A DNA stretch of 50,149 nucleotides from the NCBI GenBank assembly GCA_030145195.1, contig JAQYVY010000027.1, positions 1 through 50,149 of the forward strand, read 5' to 3'. Shown in pieces: positions 32,297 through 39,664 of the stretch. The notes beneath the pieces are model-generated. The model did not search any database. It saw nothing but the letters and a program-made list of their open reading frames with translations, and was not told where the DNA came from. Each line of letters begins with the position of its first letter. The stretch's first letter is position 1. A program made the position numbers and the translations under genes. The stretch is from Desulfuromonadales bacterium (GTDB lineage Bacteria; Desulfobacterota; Desulfuromonadia; Desulfuromonadales; BM103).

Positions 32297-32498
32297 TCTA
32301 GGTATCTCCTCCCACATAAATAATTTGGTAATTTGTTCTGTAACAATTCTCTAACATGAAGATGATCAGCCCGAGTCAAGAAAACTTTGCCACAAAAGGA
32401 CGCAGTGAAAACGTAATTTTAAAAAATGTTTTCTCTGTGCCTTCGTGTCTCTGTGCCATCGTGTCTCTGTGGCAAGCCTTTGACTTTGTCGTGCAGAG
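32297..32498. other. iscR-iscS gap with repeat element
   Basis: This 202-bp gap inside the cysE-isc cluster contains the inverted-repeat element at 32387-32475 and the iscS ribosome site. No gene is visible. Confidence 0.5.
32387..32475. repeat. Intergenic inverted-repeat element A
   Basis: TTGCCACA (32387-32394) and TGTGGCAA (32468-32475) bound the element. The right arm is built of repeated words such as CTTCGTGTCTCTGTG and ATCGTGTCTCTGTGG. It resembles the CTTTGCG-type elements elsewhere in the window. It lies between iscR and iscS. Confidence 0.55.
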
Positions 32499-33947: not shown

Positions 33948-35456
33948 TCAAAGAAACATCTGATAAGCAGCGTTCTCGGTTTCTTCGACGTAACGATAAC
34001 CAAGGCTATTGAGGAATCCACCCAAAGCAGCTTCCTGACGCGATGGGAGCTCCAGACCAATCAGCACTCGGCCAAAGTCTCCACCCTGAATTCGATAATG
34101 AAAGAGAGAAATATTCCAGTCGGCACCCATGGTGGCGAGGAAGCGAGCTAAAGCGCCAGGACGTTCTGGGAACCAGAAGCGATAGAGCTTTTCATTACGG
34201 ACGTCAGCGGAACGGCCACCGACCATATAGCGCACGTGAGTTTTGGCCAGTTCATTATCGGTCAAATCAACATTATCAAAACCCTGCTCAGTCAACTGCT
34301 CACGGAAAGCCAGGCGTTGTTCATCACCATTAATGGCAATACCGACGAAAATGTATGCGGCCTTACGCCCGGACAGTCGATAATTAAATTCGGTAATATT
34401 TCGCTCGCCGATCACTTCGCGACAAAAACGGTAGAGCGCCCCCGGTTCCTCGGGAATCGTCACGGCAAAGAGTGCTTCTTGCTTCTCACCAATCAAAGTC
34501 CGCTCAGCAACATAGCGCAGTCGATCAAAGTTCATGTTGGCGCCGGAGTTAATCGCGATCAGGGTTTGCCCTGTGACCTGACGCTCGTTCACATATTTTT
34601 TCAGCCCGGCCAAGGCCAGCGCTCCAGCAGGCTCGACGATAGAACGAGTCGCCTGGTAGACGCTCTTGATTGAACTGCAGATTTCATCGACGTCAACCCG
34701 GATGATCTCATCAACATGCTTGCGACAGATGTCGAAAGTCAGGCGACCAACCTCACGCACAGCCACGCCATCAGCAAAGATTCCGACGGTATCGAGCTTA
34801 ACGCGATGGCCCGCCTCCAGAGAACGTGCCATGGCGTCGCTATCGACCGGCTCAACCCCGATGACCTTGACCTCCGGGCAGAGCGATTTCAAAAAGACCG
34901 CCATCCCGGCAATCAGGCCTCCACCGCCAACCGGGATGAAGACCGCGTCCATATTGCCGGAGCTTTGGCGTAGCAGTTCATTGGCGATCGTGCCCTGCCC
35001 GGCGATGACTAAGTTATCATCAAAGGGCGGAATAAAAACCATGCCGTTCTGGGTCACCAGATACGCGCAATGTTCGGCCGCTTCTGAATAGTTGTCGCCA
35101 AAGAGAACCACCTTGGCACCATAAGACTTGACCGCAGAGACCTTGATCGCAGGCGTCGTCACGGGCATCACGATGATGGTTTCGATGCCGAGTTTCTGCC
35201 CGGAGAATGCGACCCCCTGAGCATGGTTGCCAGCGGAAGCGGTGATCACGCCCTTCTCCCGCTCTGCCGCGGTGAGATGCGCAATCCGATTATAGGCACC
35301 ACGGATTTTAAAAGAGAACACCGGCTGGAGATCCTCGCGCTTAAGCAGCACGCGATTATTCAGCATCTCCGACAAGACAACCGCTTCTTCGAGCGGTGTT
35401 TCAATGGCGACAGCGTAAACCTTGGAGGTCAATATTTGTTTGAGCATTTTCTGCAT
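33948..35456 (-). CDS. ilvA: Threonine ammonia-lyase, biosynthetic
   Basis: The 502-residue PLP enzyme starts at 35456 and makes 2-oxobutanoate from threonine, the first step to isoleucine. The PLP lysine is in FSFKIRGAYNR, with SAGNHAQGVAFS and GGGGLIAGMA around the cofactor. Two C-terminal ACT-like domains (about residues 330-500; EEPGALYRFCREVIG and ERPGALARFLATMG) mark the allosterically regulated biosynthetic form. The repeat pair B lies upstream. Confidence 0.96.
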   Translation of the reverse strand: MQKMLKQILTSKVYAVAIETPLEEAVVLSEMLNNRVLLKREDLQPVFSFKIRGAYNRIAHLTAAEREKGVITASAGNHAQGVAFSGQKLGIETIIVMPVTTPAIKVSAVKSYGAKVVLFGDNYSEAAEHCAYLVTQNGMVFIPPFDDNLVIAGQGTIANELLRQSSGNMDAVFIPVGGGGLIAGMAVFLKSLCPEVKVIGVEPVDSDAMARSLEAGHRVKLDTVGIFADGVAVREVGRLTFDICRKHVDEIIRVDVDEICSSIKSVYQATRSIVEPAGALALAGLKKYVNERQVTGQTLIAINSGANMNFDRLRYVAERTLIGEKQEALFAVTIPEEPGALYRFCREVIGERNITEFNYRLSGRKAAYIFVGIAINGDEQRLAFREQLTEQGFDNVDLTDNELAKTHVRYMVGGRSADVRNEKLYRFWFPERPGALARFLATMGADWNISLFHYRIQGGDFGRVLIGLELPSRQEAALGGFLNSLGYRYVEETENAAYQMFL

Positions 35457-35572
35457 GGTTTCGGTTCCAGGCCAGCGAGGGTTACAGCGAAAGCCAAACA
35501 ATATGCGGAAGTGACTGAAATTTCAACATGAAACCACAGACAAATCTCGGGCAAAGGCAAATAATCAAACCA

Positions 35573-35998
35573 GACAACCAAAGCATAAAAATAACGCAAA
35601 GGCGCAAAGACGCGAAGAAAACCTATACTAAACAATCAAAACAAAACATGAGAAGCATAGAACCTTGAAGTCTGCTGCTAGTTACCTTCAACCATTGGGT
35701 CTTTAATCACCCAAAATATAGGTTCTGGTTTTGTGATCAGCTTTTGCCTTTGCGACTTTACGACTTTGCGTTAAAAGGCCTGAAGTAAAACCGGACAACC
35801 AAACCATAAAAATAACGCAAAGGCGCAAAGCCGCGAAGAAAACCTATACTAAACAATCAAAACAAAACATGAGAAGCATAGAACCTTGAAGTCTGCTGCT
35901 AGTCACCTTCAACCATTGGGTCTTTAATCACCCAAAATATAGGTTCTGGTTTTGTGATCAGCTTTTGCCTTTGCGACTTTACGACTTTGCGTTAAAAG
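35573..35998. repeat. Tandem intergenic repeat B (two ~205-nt units, 221-nt period)
   Basis: Units 35573-35777 and 35794-35998 are almost identical. Each begins with CGCAAAGGCGCAAAG and GCGAAGAAAACCTATA and ends with TATAGGTTCTGGTTTT and CTTTGCGACTTTACGACTTT. Each unit is therefore an imperfect inverted repeat with nested arms. It has no convincing coding frame. The two units differ at only a few positions, so the duplication is recent or maintained by conversion. Confidence 0.85.
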
Positions 35999-36067
35999 AA
36001 TCTTGCCTGGCATTAAAATGCCTGTGTTCGCTGATCGTTGCTCAAAATCATAAGCAACACTTAATTA

Positions 36068-36096
36068 TCGACAACTGTATACAGTTTCGATATACT
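36068..36096 (+). promoter_or_regulatory. Sigma-70 promoter with operator-like palindrome for fumarase
   Basis: TCGACA, 17 bases, TATACT gives a good promoter ~75 bp before the fumarase start. The perfect palindrome AACTGTATACAGTT (36073-36086) fills the spacer, where a bound repressor would block polymerase. The shape is like a GntR-type site, but the regulator is not identified. Confidence 0.6.
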
Positions 36097-36170
36097 GCGA
36101 AATCAGTTTAGTTCTAGGGTTACAGTGCCCTGGAGATCTTATTTCATATCTATATTCAAGGAGAGAAATC

Positions 36171-37790
36171 ATGCCAGAATTCTTTTACCAGGATCCCTTT
36201 CCCCTGGCCAAGGACAACACCAAGTACCGCAAAGTTGAAGGCTCGGAAAAGTATGTCAGCACTGCGAACTTCGATGGGCAGGAAATCCTCAAAATTGCGC
36301 CCGAGGGCTTGACGGTTCTCGCCAATGAATCCATGCGCGACATCTCGTTCCTGTTGCGTCCCGAGCATAACGAACAGGTCGCCAAGATCCTGAGCGATCC
36401 CGAAGCGCCACAAAATGAAAAGGGCGTGGCGGTGGCGTTCCTGCGCAATGCCGAAGTTGCGGCCAAGTTTGAGCTGCCGACCTGCCAGGACACTGGCACG
36501 GCAACTATTGTGGCGAAAAAAGGTCAGAACGTCTTTACCGGCTTCAATGATGCCGAAATGCTCTCCAAGGGTATCCACAAGACCTACACCGAAGAAAGTC
36601 TGCGTTATTCGCAAACCGTCGCCCTGGATATGTACACCGAAAAAAACACTGGCACAAACCTGCCAGCCCAGATCGACATCATGGCCACTGAAGGCAATGC
36701 CTACAAGTTCATGTTTATTGCCAAAGGCGGCGGTTCAGCCAACAAAACCATGCTGTACCAAGAGACCAAAGCGCTCCTGACCCCCGACAATCTCGAAGAC
36801 TACCTGGTCGGCAAAATGAAGACTTTAGGCACAGCCGCTTGTCCGCCTTACCATATTGGCTTTGTTATTGGTGGCACCTCAGCTGATGCCGTGATGAAGA
36901 CCGTCAAACTCGCAACAGCAAAAGAACTCGACGGTCTGCCGACAACCGGCAATGAGCATGGTCAGGCTTTTCGCGACGTCGCGTTGGAAGACCAGCTTTT
37001 GGTCAGGGCACAGCAGCTCGGCATCGGCGCCCAGTTCGGCGGCAAATATTTCGCCCACGACATCCGTGTCATCCGCCTGCCACGCCACGGTGCCTCCTGC
37101 CCGATCGGCATGGCCGTCTCCTGCTCCGCCGACCGTAACGTCAAGGCCAAGATCACCAGCGAAGGTCTCTTTGTCGAAGAGCTGGATCGCAACCCTGGCC
37201 GTCTTATCCCCGATGCCTATCGTGGCAAGCACGACCACGGCGTCAAGATCAACTTGAACCAGCCGATGGAAGCGATCTTGGCCGAACTGACCAAGCACCC
37301 GGTGTCCACCCCGCTGCTCCTGTCCGGGACCATCGTGGTCGGTCGCGACATTGCACATTCCAAGTTCAAAGAGATTCTTGATTCCGGCAAGCCGCTTCCT
37401 GATTATCTCAAAAAACATCCGATCTACTATGCTGGCCCAGCCAAAACTCCGGAAGGCAAGCCCTCCGGCTCCTTTGGCCCGACGACGGCAGGACGCATGG
37501 ACTCCTACGTCGGCCTACTACAAGCCAACGGCGGCTCCATGGTGATGATCGCCAAGGGTAACCGCTCCCAGCAGGTGACTGACGCTTGCAAAGAGCATGG
37601 AGGCTTCTATCTCGGCTCAATCGGTGGCCCCGCTGCCCTGCTGGCCGAAGAGAATATCAAGAAGGTTGAATGCATTGACTTCCCGGAACTCGGCATGGAA
37701 GCCGTCTGGAAAATCGAAGTTGAAGACTTTCCAGCATTCATTCTGGTTGACGACAAAGGCAACGACTTCTTCAAGAAGCTCGGCCTTTAA
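36171..37790 (+). CDS. Class I fumarate hydratase (4Fe-4S)
   Basis: The 539-residue single-chain enzyme interconverts fumarate and malate. The N-terminal catalytic half has CQDTGTATI with a cluster cysteine, [14 protein letters not shown], and [13 protein letters not shown]. The C-terminal half has [15 protein letters not shown] and the [13 protein letters not shown] block. This is the oxygen-sensitive iron-sulfur type (FumA/FumB), not the class II FumC type. AAGGAG precedes the ATG. It has its own promoter and terminator, so it is monocistronic. It serves the TCA cycle in either direction. Confidence 0.96.
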
Positions 37791-39314: not shown

Positions 39315-39391
39315 TCTTCTTCTCTCCTGACAAAGATATGTCTGCTGCAACAAACAACAAAAACAAAACAATAAAAAAGAAACAAAAAAGA

Positions 39392-39664
39392 GTTATCGCA
39401 AAGACGCCATGGACAACCAGAAAGACGCAAAGGATGAACTACCCAGCCCATCAAATGTTTTCTTTGCGTCTTGCTTTAAACCTTTGCGCCCTTTGCGTTA
39501 AGGCTTACGGGTTTTTGACTGGTTTGCTTACAACAAAAACCAAACAAAATAAGTTAACGCAAAGTCGCTAAAGACAACCAGAAAGACTCAAAGGATGAAC
39601 CACCCGATCAAGCATAGGTTTTCTTCGCGTCTTGCCTCACCCCTTTGCGCTCTTTGCGTTAAGC
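39392..39664. repeat. Tandem intergenic repeat C (two 112-nt units, 161-nt period)
   Basis: Units 39392-39503 and 39553-39664 share GACAACCAGAAAGAC, AAAGGATGAAC and a CTTTGCGTTAAG end. Each starts with CGCAAAG and ends with CTTTGCGYYCTTTGCGTT in the opposite orientation, an imperfect inverted repeat. They resemble repeat B but are shorter and more diverged. Confidence 0.75.

What the first reader, a model, noticed from the sequence alone, without database searches (positions are those of the whole stretch)
35573..35998. Recent tandem duplication of an intergenic mosaic element
Two ~205-nt units with a 221-nt period are almost identical. Each is an imperfect inverted repeat made from CGCAAAG words with nested arms (AACCTATA/TATAGGTT). 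There is no gene inside, and the unit is not a known insertion sequence that I can name. Such a unit looks like a non-autonomous mobile or structural element.
Basis: partly seen in the sequence, partly recalled or inferred. Interest (0 to 1): 0.55.

Follow-up and report, generated by a model that had tools for sequence, protein, structure and literature searches.

The report
Duplicated CGCAAAG inverted-repeat intergenic element
A short non-coding DNA element, duplicated back to back between two genes, belongs to a family of repeats sharing an eight-letter motif that is found many times in this genome and in bacteria of unrelated groups, where at least one relative looks like a small mobile element.

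Summary
In detail: two 205-nt units (35573-35777, 35794-35998; 3 mismatches, period 221) lie in the divergent ilvA-fumarase spacer. The whole unit occurs nowhere else in the genome, but its arms do: AACGCAAAGNCGCAAAG (up to 2 mismatches) has 267 matches against 4 for a reversed control. Neighbouring arms are mostly inverted pairs (51 of 65 within 300 nt), mostly between genes, around unrelated middles. Of 20 relatives sharing the spacer, 19 lack arms and one has a different element, so this copy was probably gained in this lineage, then duplicated. A second tandem duplication (39374-39663) and a seven-copy array show that tandem growth recurs. The core is multicopy in all 32 named genomes tested (chosen because they hold a pair; about nine phyla). 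In Sorangium it is the centre of a 162-186-nt dispersed repeat, absent at two matching sites in sister genomes. No element-specific pairing, target duplication or RAYT link was found, nor a phage or plasmid carrier in limited searches. Best reading: a non-autonomous, MITE-like intergenic repeat with unknown mobilising enzyme; movement is supported in Sorangium, inferred here. Whether the cross-phylum core is one lineage or convergence is open.

The parts
35573..35777 (.). unit 1 of the tandem duplication (non-coding)
   Evidence: 205 nt, 3 mismatches to unit 2; period 221
35778..35793 (.). 16-nt linker between the units
   Evidence: sequence and repeat coordinates
35794..35998 (.). unit 2 of the tandem duplication
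35592..35617 (+). left octad arm of unit 1
   Evidence: inverted repeat I1; family match
35748..35773 (-). right octad arm of unit 1
   Evidence: inverted repeat I1
35813..35838 (+). left octad arm of unit 2
   Evidence: inverted repeat I3
35969..35994 (-). right octad arm of unit 2
   Evidence: inverted repeat I3
35620..35627 (+). inner word AACCTATA, unit 1 (second copy 35841-35848)
   Evidence: read in sequence
35717..35724 (+). inner word TATAGGTT, unit 1 (second copy 35938-35945)
   Evidence: read in sequence
33948..35501 (-). left flanking gene: threonine dehydratase (ilvA-type); start codon not certain
   Evidence: PF00291 E 6e-83 and PF00585 E 6.5e-48
36171..37790 (+). right flanking gene: class I-type fumarate hydratase
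   Evidence: PF05681 and PF05683
39374..39663 (.). second tandem duplication of a member of the same family (129-nt copies 39374-39502 and 39535-39663, period 161, 80%)
   Evidence: sequence

Best explanation
The unit is one member of a family of short, non-coding, intergenic repeats. Each has two inverted arms of tandem CGCAAAGN octads (opening TTTAACGCAAAG, closing CTTTGCGTTAAA) around a middle that differs between members. SHOWN: the arms are multicopy here, mostly in + then - order and mostly between genes; the ilvA-fumarase spacer lacks them in 19 of 20 relatives; tandem copies recur in this genome; in Sorangium the same core sits inside a dispersed, longer element that is absent at two matching sites of sister genomes. 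INFERRED: members spread as non-autonomous, MITE-like elements moved in trans by an enzyme not identified; this copy arrived in the spacer after this lineage split from the sampled relatives; it was then duplicated in tandem by local slippage or unequal recombination. No host function is needed to explain it.
For: Own genome: 267 arm matches (overlapping registers counted) against 4 control. In 722,860 bases of stretches picked around arms plus the window: 145 merged arms; 51 '+ then -', 11 '+ +', 2 '- then +' and 1 '- -' neighbours within 300 nt. 8 of 51 elements overlap an ORF of 100 aa or more, against 91% of random placements (crude ORF caller). Locus: divergent ilvA-fumarase spacer in 20 relatives, 154-417 nt between tblastn match ends (own 669, which is 227 without two 221-nt periods); arms in 1 of 20, a different element in G030. 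Tandem growth: 39374-39663 and seven copies at 78-85-nt spacing in L084. Sorangium: 19 loci aligned; CTAGTTCCGC-type ends (up to 3 mismatches) recognised on both sides in 16 of 17 So0157-2 loci, 162-186 nt. 35 further So0157-2 places at 84-94% identity, 20 of the 35 with both ends within 10 nt of the query element's ends (my count, which scored 40 candidates a genome, so a lower bound). Joined flanks match in one piece: the L150 site in 4 of 5 other Sorangium genomes, the L180 site in 1 of 5. Sample not chosen for arms: in 800 kb of relative G004, CGCAAAG (13 sites) is the only tandem octad above one occurrence among the 25 most frequent listed, apart from its own shifted register. Copy number in the family varies 0-184.
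Against: No other full copy of this unit in the genome, and middles of other elements are mostly unrelated (7 spacer alignments at E <= 1e-3: the window pair, four within contig C50, two between contigs), which plain copy-and-paste would not predict unless copies are old. The elements were picked by the arm motif, so arm likeness is partly built in. No target-site duplication. No arm pair within about 1.5 kb of five Y1_Tnp genes. In G004 only 5 pairs were seen among 28 arms, so many arms there are unpaired at that stringency. At 5 of 11 spacers comparable with G004, arms occur in both genera, so part of the set may be inherited or replaced in place. No same-genus genome was available. Two of the four joined Sorangium sites were not resolved, and at the two that were, the spacers are too diverged to fix the insertion point to the base.
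Confidence: 0.6

Rival explanations
1. Protein-binding sites: tandem octads in two inverted clusters are bound by a nucleoid or global regulator (HU/IHF-like), and sequence-specific binding keeps the arms while the middle drifts.
For: Arms keep the octad while middles do not (arms were picked by motif). Geobacter metallireducens has paired, oppositely oriented four-octanucleotide sites (consensus GTTGCTYN) at variable distance, proposed as global-regulator sites (PMC2700814, passages and supplement legends seen). Arms occur in both genera at 5 of 11 comparable spacers.
Against: Copy number varies 0-184 within the family, with no match in 2 of 22 genomes. At one shared spacer the G004 arm is closer to a non-orthologous element of this genome (41 of 42) than to its positional partner (35 of 42); three non-orthologous arms score above the partner.
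Confidence: 0.2
2. RNA-level hairpin (terminator, mRNA stabiliser or small RNA) under selection for pairing.
For: Folds better than shuffles on both strands. Across genomes of different phyla the two arms of one element resemble each other outside the core more than arms of other elements (z 2.3 to 6.0).
Against: That excess vanishes when arms are permuted within genomes (n = 46, z -3.4 to -0.9; without Sorangium n = 29, z -1.0 to -0.5), and in this genome arms of one element are no more complementary to each other than to arms of others (n = 50, z -1.9 to +1.0). Gene context: 31 same-strand, 8 divergent, 4 convergent of 43 scored, against 121, 58 and 44 of 223 gene pairs with gaps of 100 nt or more, so no leaning to convergent 3' ends. 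No Rfam match up to E = 1. The one terminator-like site in 35450-36200 is outside the units.
Confidence: 0.08
3. REP/BIME element moved by a RAYT transposase.
For: Intergenic palindromic units in inverted pairs and high copy, as in BIMEs; five Y1_Tnp matches in the genome.
Against: No fixed GTAG or CGTC tag in the arm consensus (tags as in PMC3733652, passages), although CGTC arises inside an arm where the free base of the octad is A; no arm pair near any of the five Y1_Tnp loci, one single arm near one of them.
Confidence: 0.07
4. Convergent slippage product: the octad array arises repeatedly by replication slippage and template switching, so the cross-phylum likeness is not descent.
For: Octad number varies between elements; sister octads with the same layout exist (two CACAGAG pairs in G004; L103 spacer in G004).
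Against: CGCAAAG is uniquely frequent among tandem octads in 800 kb not chosen for arms; slippage alone does not predict one octad in many phyla.
Confidence: 0.15

Closest known systems
Paired octanucleotide-repeat sites (classes 1 and 2) of Geobacter metallireducens (PMC2700814)
   Same: Tandem octamer clusters on opposite strands, variable distance, multicopy (legends)
   Different: Octad GTTGCTYN or TCTCCGTS[Y], not CGCAAAGN; called unique to that genome by its authors; the alignments are in supplements that were not readable here
MITEs (miniature inverted-repeat transposable elements)
   Same: Short, non-coding, inverted ends, dispersed and polymorphic (Sorangium copies)
   Different: No target duplication found, no parental transposase found, middles not shared between copies in this genome
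REP/BIME repeats (GTAG or CGTC tagged) with RAYTs (PMC3733652)
   Same: Pairs of short repeats between genes, known from many phyla
   Different: No fixed tag, octad arrays instead of a single 20-40-bp hairpin, no RAYT association

Membership tests
MITE | Inverted terminal repeats on a short non-coding element | tested here: met
   51 of 65 arm neighbours within 300 nt are + then -; Sorangium ends CTAGTTCCGC/GCGGAACTAG in 16 of 17 loci with up to 3 mismatches
MITE | Dispersed near-identical copies | tested here: inconclusive
   Met in Sorangium (35 further places); not met for this unit in its own genome
MITE | Empty sites in relatives | tested here: inconclusive
   Two of four joined Sorangium sites gave one-piece matches elsewhere, but spacers are too diverged to fix the insertion point. 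For the window locus the spacer lacks arms in 19 of 20 relatives, also too diverged for an exact empty site
MITE | Target-site duplication | tested here: not met
   49 elements of this genome: no offset beyond the permuted maxima and no longer direct repeats than permuted flanks; a slight overall excess of shared 2- and 3-mers (about 2 sd)
MITE | Ends shared with an autonomous element | tested here: inconclusive
   Only two long arm-bounded stretches looked at; their ORFs read as ordinary genes to me, no family search made
REP/BIME (RAYT-mobilised) | GTAG or CGTC tag at the repeat end | tested here: not met
   Arm consensus opens TTTAACGCAAAG with a variable base between octads
REP/BIME (RAYT-mobilised) | RAYT gene flanked by the repeat | tested here: not met
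   5 Y1_Tnp loci, none with an arm pair, one with a single arm
Geobacter paired octanucleotide sites | Tandem octads on opposite strands with variable spacing | tested here: met
   against the legend
Geobacter paired octanucleotide sites | Octad consensus GTTGCTYN | tested here: not met
   Octad here is CGCAAAGN
Geobacter paired octanucleotide sites | Binding by a regulator | not testable with these tools
   no binding data
Rfam RNA family | Covariance-model match | tested here: not met
   0 matches up to E = 1 in 34500-37000

The most novel reading that the evidence does not exclude
One ancient class of chromosome-borne, enzyme-dependent element, defined by inverted CGCAAAGN octad arms, has spread across about nine bacterial phyla. 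It keeps its octad core while its outer ends and middle are remade in each lineage, and it is moved or homogenised by a host-encoded activity not yet described rather than carried by phages or plasmids.
Probability: 0.3. Interest if true: 0.78.

Novelty: new variant of a known kind. Interest (0 to 1): 0.5.

Why it matters
From general knowledge, short intergenic repeats are mostly lineage-specific. A non-coding core with the same 16 fixed bases, multicopy in genomes whose record titles fall into about nine phyla by my grouping, needs either very wide horizontal spread or a shared process that keeps remaking one octad. No carrier was seen: 0 viral contigs hold the exact pair and the unit has no match in plasmids or phages, but these searches were narrow. 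Pairing was demanded by the pattern; outside that, the 50 exact places listed for G438 include 13 neighbours within 200 nt, all + then - (my count). Either answer would be informative, and the Sorangium copies give a system where it can be tested. I found no description of the motif in print: CGCAAAG alone (266 papers, 20 listed, none on bacterial repeats by title), 15-mers and a translation (0 papers), AACGCAAAG with intergenic and repeat (6 papers, none about such a family by title), and topic searches (one search lists 10 of 610). The library lacks most subscription journals, and supplements could not be read.

Tried and rejected
Rejected or weakened: RNA hairpin or terminator; RAYT mobilisation; target duplications; an autonomous parent between far-apart arms (ordinary metabolic genes by my reading of the translations, no family search made); a conserved peptide (for stop-free runs; for the 68-aa ORF). 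An integron attC site was considered from memory only and not tested.

Led nowhere: the exact paired pattern with a 15-45-nt gap found 0 of 395 genomes, the own genome included, so it says nothing. Exact single motif: 1 of 148 phylum genomes, the own one. Viral contigs: 0 for the paired pattern and 0 for its reversed control. Plasmids and phages: no match for the unit in distant blastn with BLAST's low-complexity filter on. In one search some G004 alignments (L088_13217, L091_15846, part of L089) are too poor to use; one row (L088_5231) rests on 24-28% identity. In one search genomes with one or two matches are not above control: 18 genomes have a control match.

Full report
OBSERVATION. The finding is real. 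Two 205-nt units, 35573-35777 and 35794-35998, differ at three positions and repeat with a period of 221. The units lie between a threonine dehydratase gene on the - strand and a fumarase gene on the + strand, so this is a shared upstream region, not a terminator region. The longest stop-free run across the units is 50 codons.

FAMILY IN THIS GENOME. Searching the genome with one unit gives the two tandem copies and then 63 short matches, to the arms. The arm motif AACGCAAAGNCGCAAAG with up to two mismatches has 267 matches, overlapping registers counted, against 4 for the reversed control. I took 40 stretches around such matches plus the window (722,860 bases, so a chosen sample). There, 145 merged arms were found; of 65 neighbour pairs within 300 nt, 51 are + then -, 11 are + +, 2 are - then + and 1 is - -. 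The 51 paired elements, both window copies among them, were extracted. They were picked by the arm motif, so the likeness of the arms is partly built in; the contrast with the middles is what counts. Middles are mostly unrelated: 7 spacer alignments at E <= 1e-3 (the window pair, four within contig C50, two between contigs), against 2,454 alignments for whole elements that include the arms. Using a crude ORF caller, 8 of 51 overlap an ORF of 100 aa or more, against 91% of random placements.

TANDEM GROWTH RECURS. In the window a second member of the family is duplicated at 39374-39663 (129-nt copies, period 161, 80%). On contig C31 seven copies with one arm each stand in a row at 78-85-nt spacing.

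THE LOCUS IN RELATIVES. The divergent ilvA-fumarase arrangement was found in 20 of 23 fumarase loci from 22 relatives; in three rows ilvA was out of reach. Spacers are 154-417 nt, measured between tblastn match ends, against 669 here; taking away two 221-nt periods leaves 227. Arms are present in 1 of 20 (G030, another family of the order), and that element is a different one. No same-genus genome was available, so an exact empty site could not be shown.

COMPARISON WITH G004. In 800 kb of a same-family genome, 13 of 51 elements had both neighbours found close together; these are 11 distinct spacers, one of them unreliable. Arms are also present in G004 in 5 of the 11 (one arm only in two of them). 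At one of these the G004 arm matches a non-orthologous element of this genome at 41 of 42 positions and its positional partner at 35 of 42; two further non-orthologous arms also score above the partner. Replacement, re-insertion or conversion would give this; simple inheritance would not. In this sample, which was not chosen for arms, CGCAAAG is the only tandem octad above one occurrence in the 25 most frequent listed, apart from its shifted register; but only 5 pairs were seen among its 28 arms at one mismatch. Copy number in the family runs from 0 to 184 over 22 genomes, with reversed-control counts of 0-2.

OTHER PHYLA. Record titles name Sorangium, Chlamydiae, Acidobacteria, Bacteroidetes, Verrucomicrobia, Chloroflexi, Planctomycetota, Proteobacteria including Beta- and Gammaproteobacteria, and Desulfuromonadales/Geomonas; grouping these into about nine phyla is from my own knowledge. 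Most are metagenome bins, but two Sorangium strains, Geomonas paludis and Thioalkalivibrio sulfidiphilus are not labelled as such. All 32 genomes tested, each chosen because it holds a pair, have 3-282 arm matches against 0-2 in the control. In 96 genomes of the phylum of G442 31 have a match; without the centre I count 133 matches against 26 in the control, and 14 of 95 genomes with three or more against 1 of 95; genomes with one or two matches are not above control (my tally). In the window's own phylum the exact motif was in 1 of 148 genomes, the own one. Phage and plasmid collections gave nothing, in narrow searches.

SORANGIUM. Nineteen Sorangium loci align over a longer element. In So0157-2, ends like CTAGTTCCGC...GCGGAACTAG (up to 3 mismatches) were recognised on both sides in 16 of 17 loci, giving 162-186 nt. 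Searching So0157-2 with one locus found 35 further places at 84-94% identity, 20 of them with both ends within 10 nt of the query element's ends (my count, a lower bound). In So ce26 the left flank of that locus continues without an element, while the right flank lies elsewhere. Of four joined sites searched in the genus (6 genomes), L150 matched in one piece in 4 of 5 other genomes and L180 in 1 of 5; for L126 and L138 I saw only matches to one flank (a cut list). The alignments show no element in those spacers, but the spacers are too diverged to fix the insertion point. In the L150 alignment the neighbouring gene seems to end in TGA where the site is free and in a TAG supplied by the element end where it is occupied; this is my reading, the frame was not checked.

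TESTS OF MECHANISM. If the hairpin itself were selected, arms of one element should match each other better than arms of other elements. In this genome they do not. Across genomes they do outside the core, but not when permuted within genomes, so I read the excess as lineage-specific ends. No target duplication was seen. Five Y1_Tnp genes have no arm pair nearby, one has a single arm. Rfam has no match.

LITERATURE. The nearest anatomy is the paired octanucleotide sites of Geobacter metallireducens (PMC2700814; passages and the section of supplement legends seen), with other octads. PMC2996986 (passages) reports further multicopy families in G. bemidjiensis whose sequences are in supplements. 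PMC3733652 (passages) defines GTAG and CGTC REPs; PMC4853749 (passages) describes MITEs in Thiomargarita. None of the passages seen shows the CGCAAAG octad.

VERDICT. A real, recent tandem duplication of one member of a large intergenic repeat family. The family behaves like MITEs in Sorangium; membership in any named family is not met on all tested features. Cross-phylum likeness of the core is the part worth following.

Noticed in passing
window 36068-36096: A TCGACAA..TGTATAC..TATACT stretch upstream of the fumarase gene has counterparts in the four relatives' spacers that were printed; it looks like a conserved promoter with a palindromic operator.
   Followed up: partly
window 32432-32471: A single arm made of a sister octad (TCTCTGTGCCTTCGTG repeated), related in layout to CACAGAG pairs seen in G004.
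   Followed up: partly
L103 1136-1531 against G004: At the same spacer this genome has CGCAAAG arms and G004 has CACAGAG-type arms in the same inverted layout.
   Followed up: no
L081, L091, L093, L099, L100, L104, L110 elements: In about nine elements the outer octad is interrupted by a second recurring word, AACGCYCGTTCGCNTTGCTCACTCAA.
   Followed up: no
L084 11405-11520: A long TTTTGTTG-type simple repeat follows directly on the last arm after the seven-copy array.
   Followed up: no
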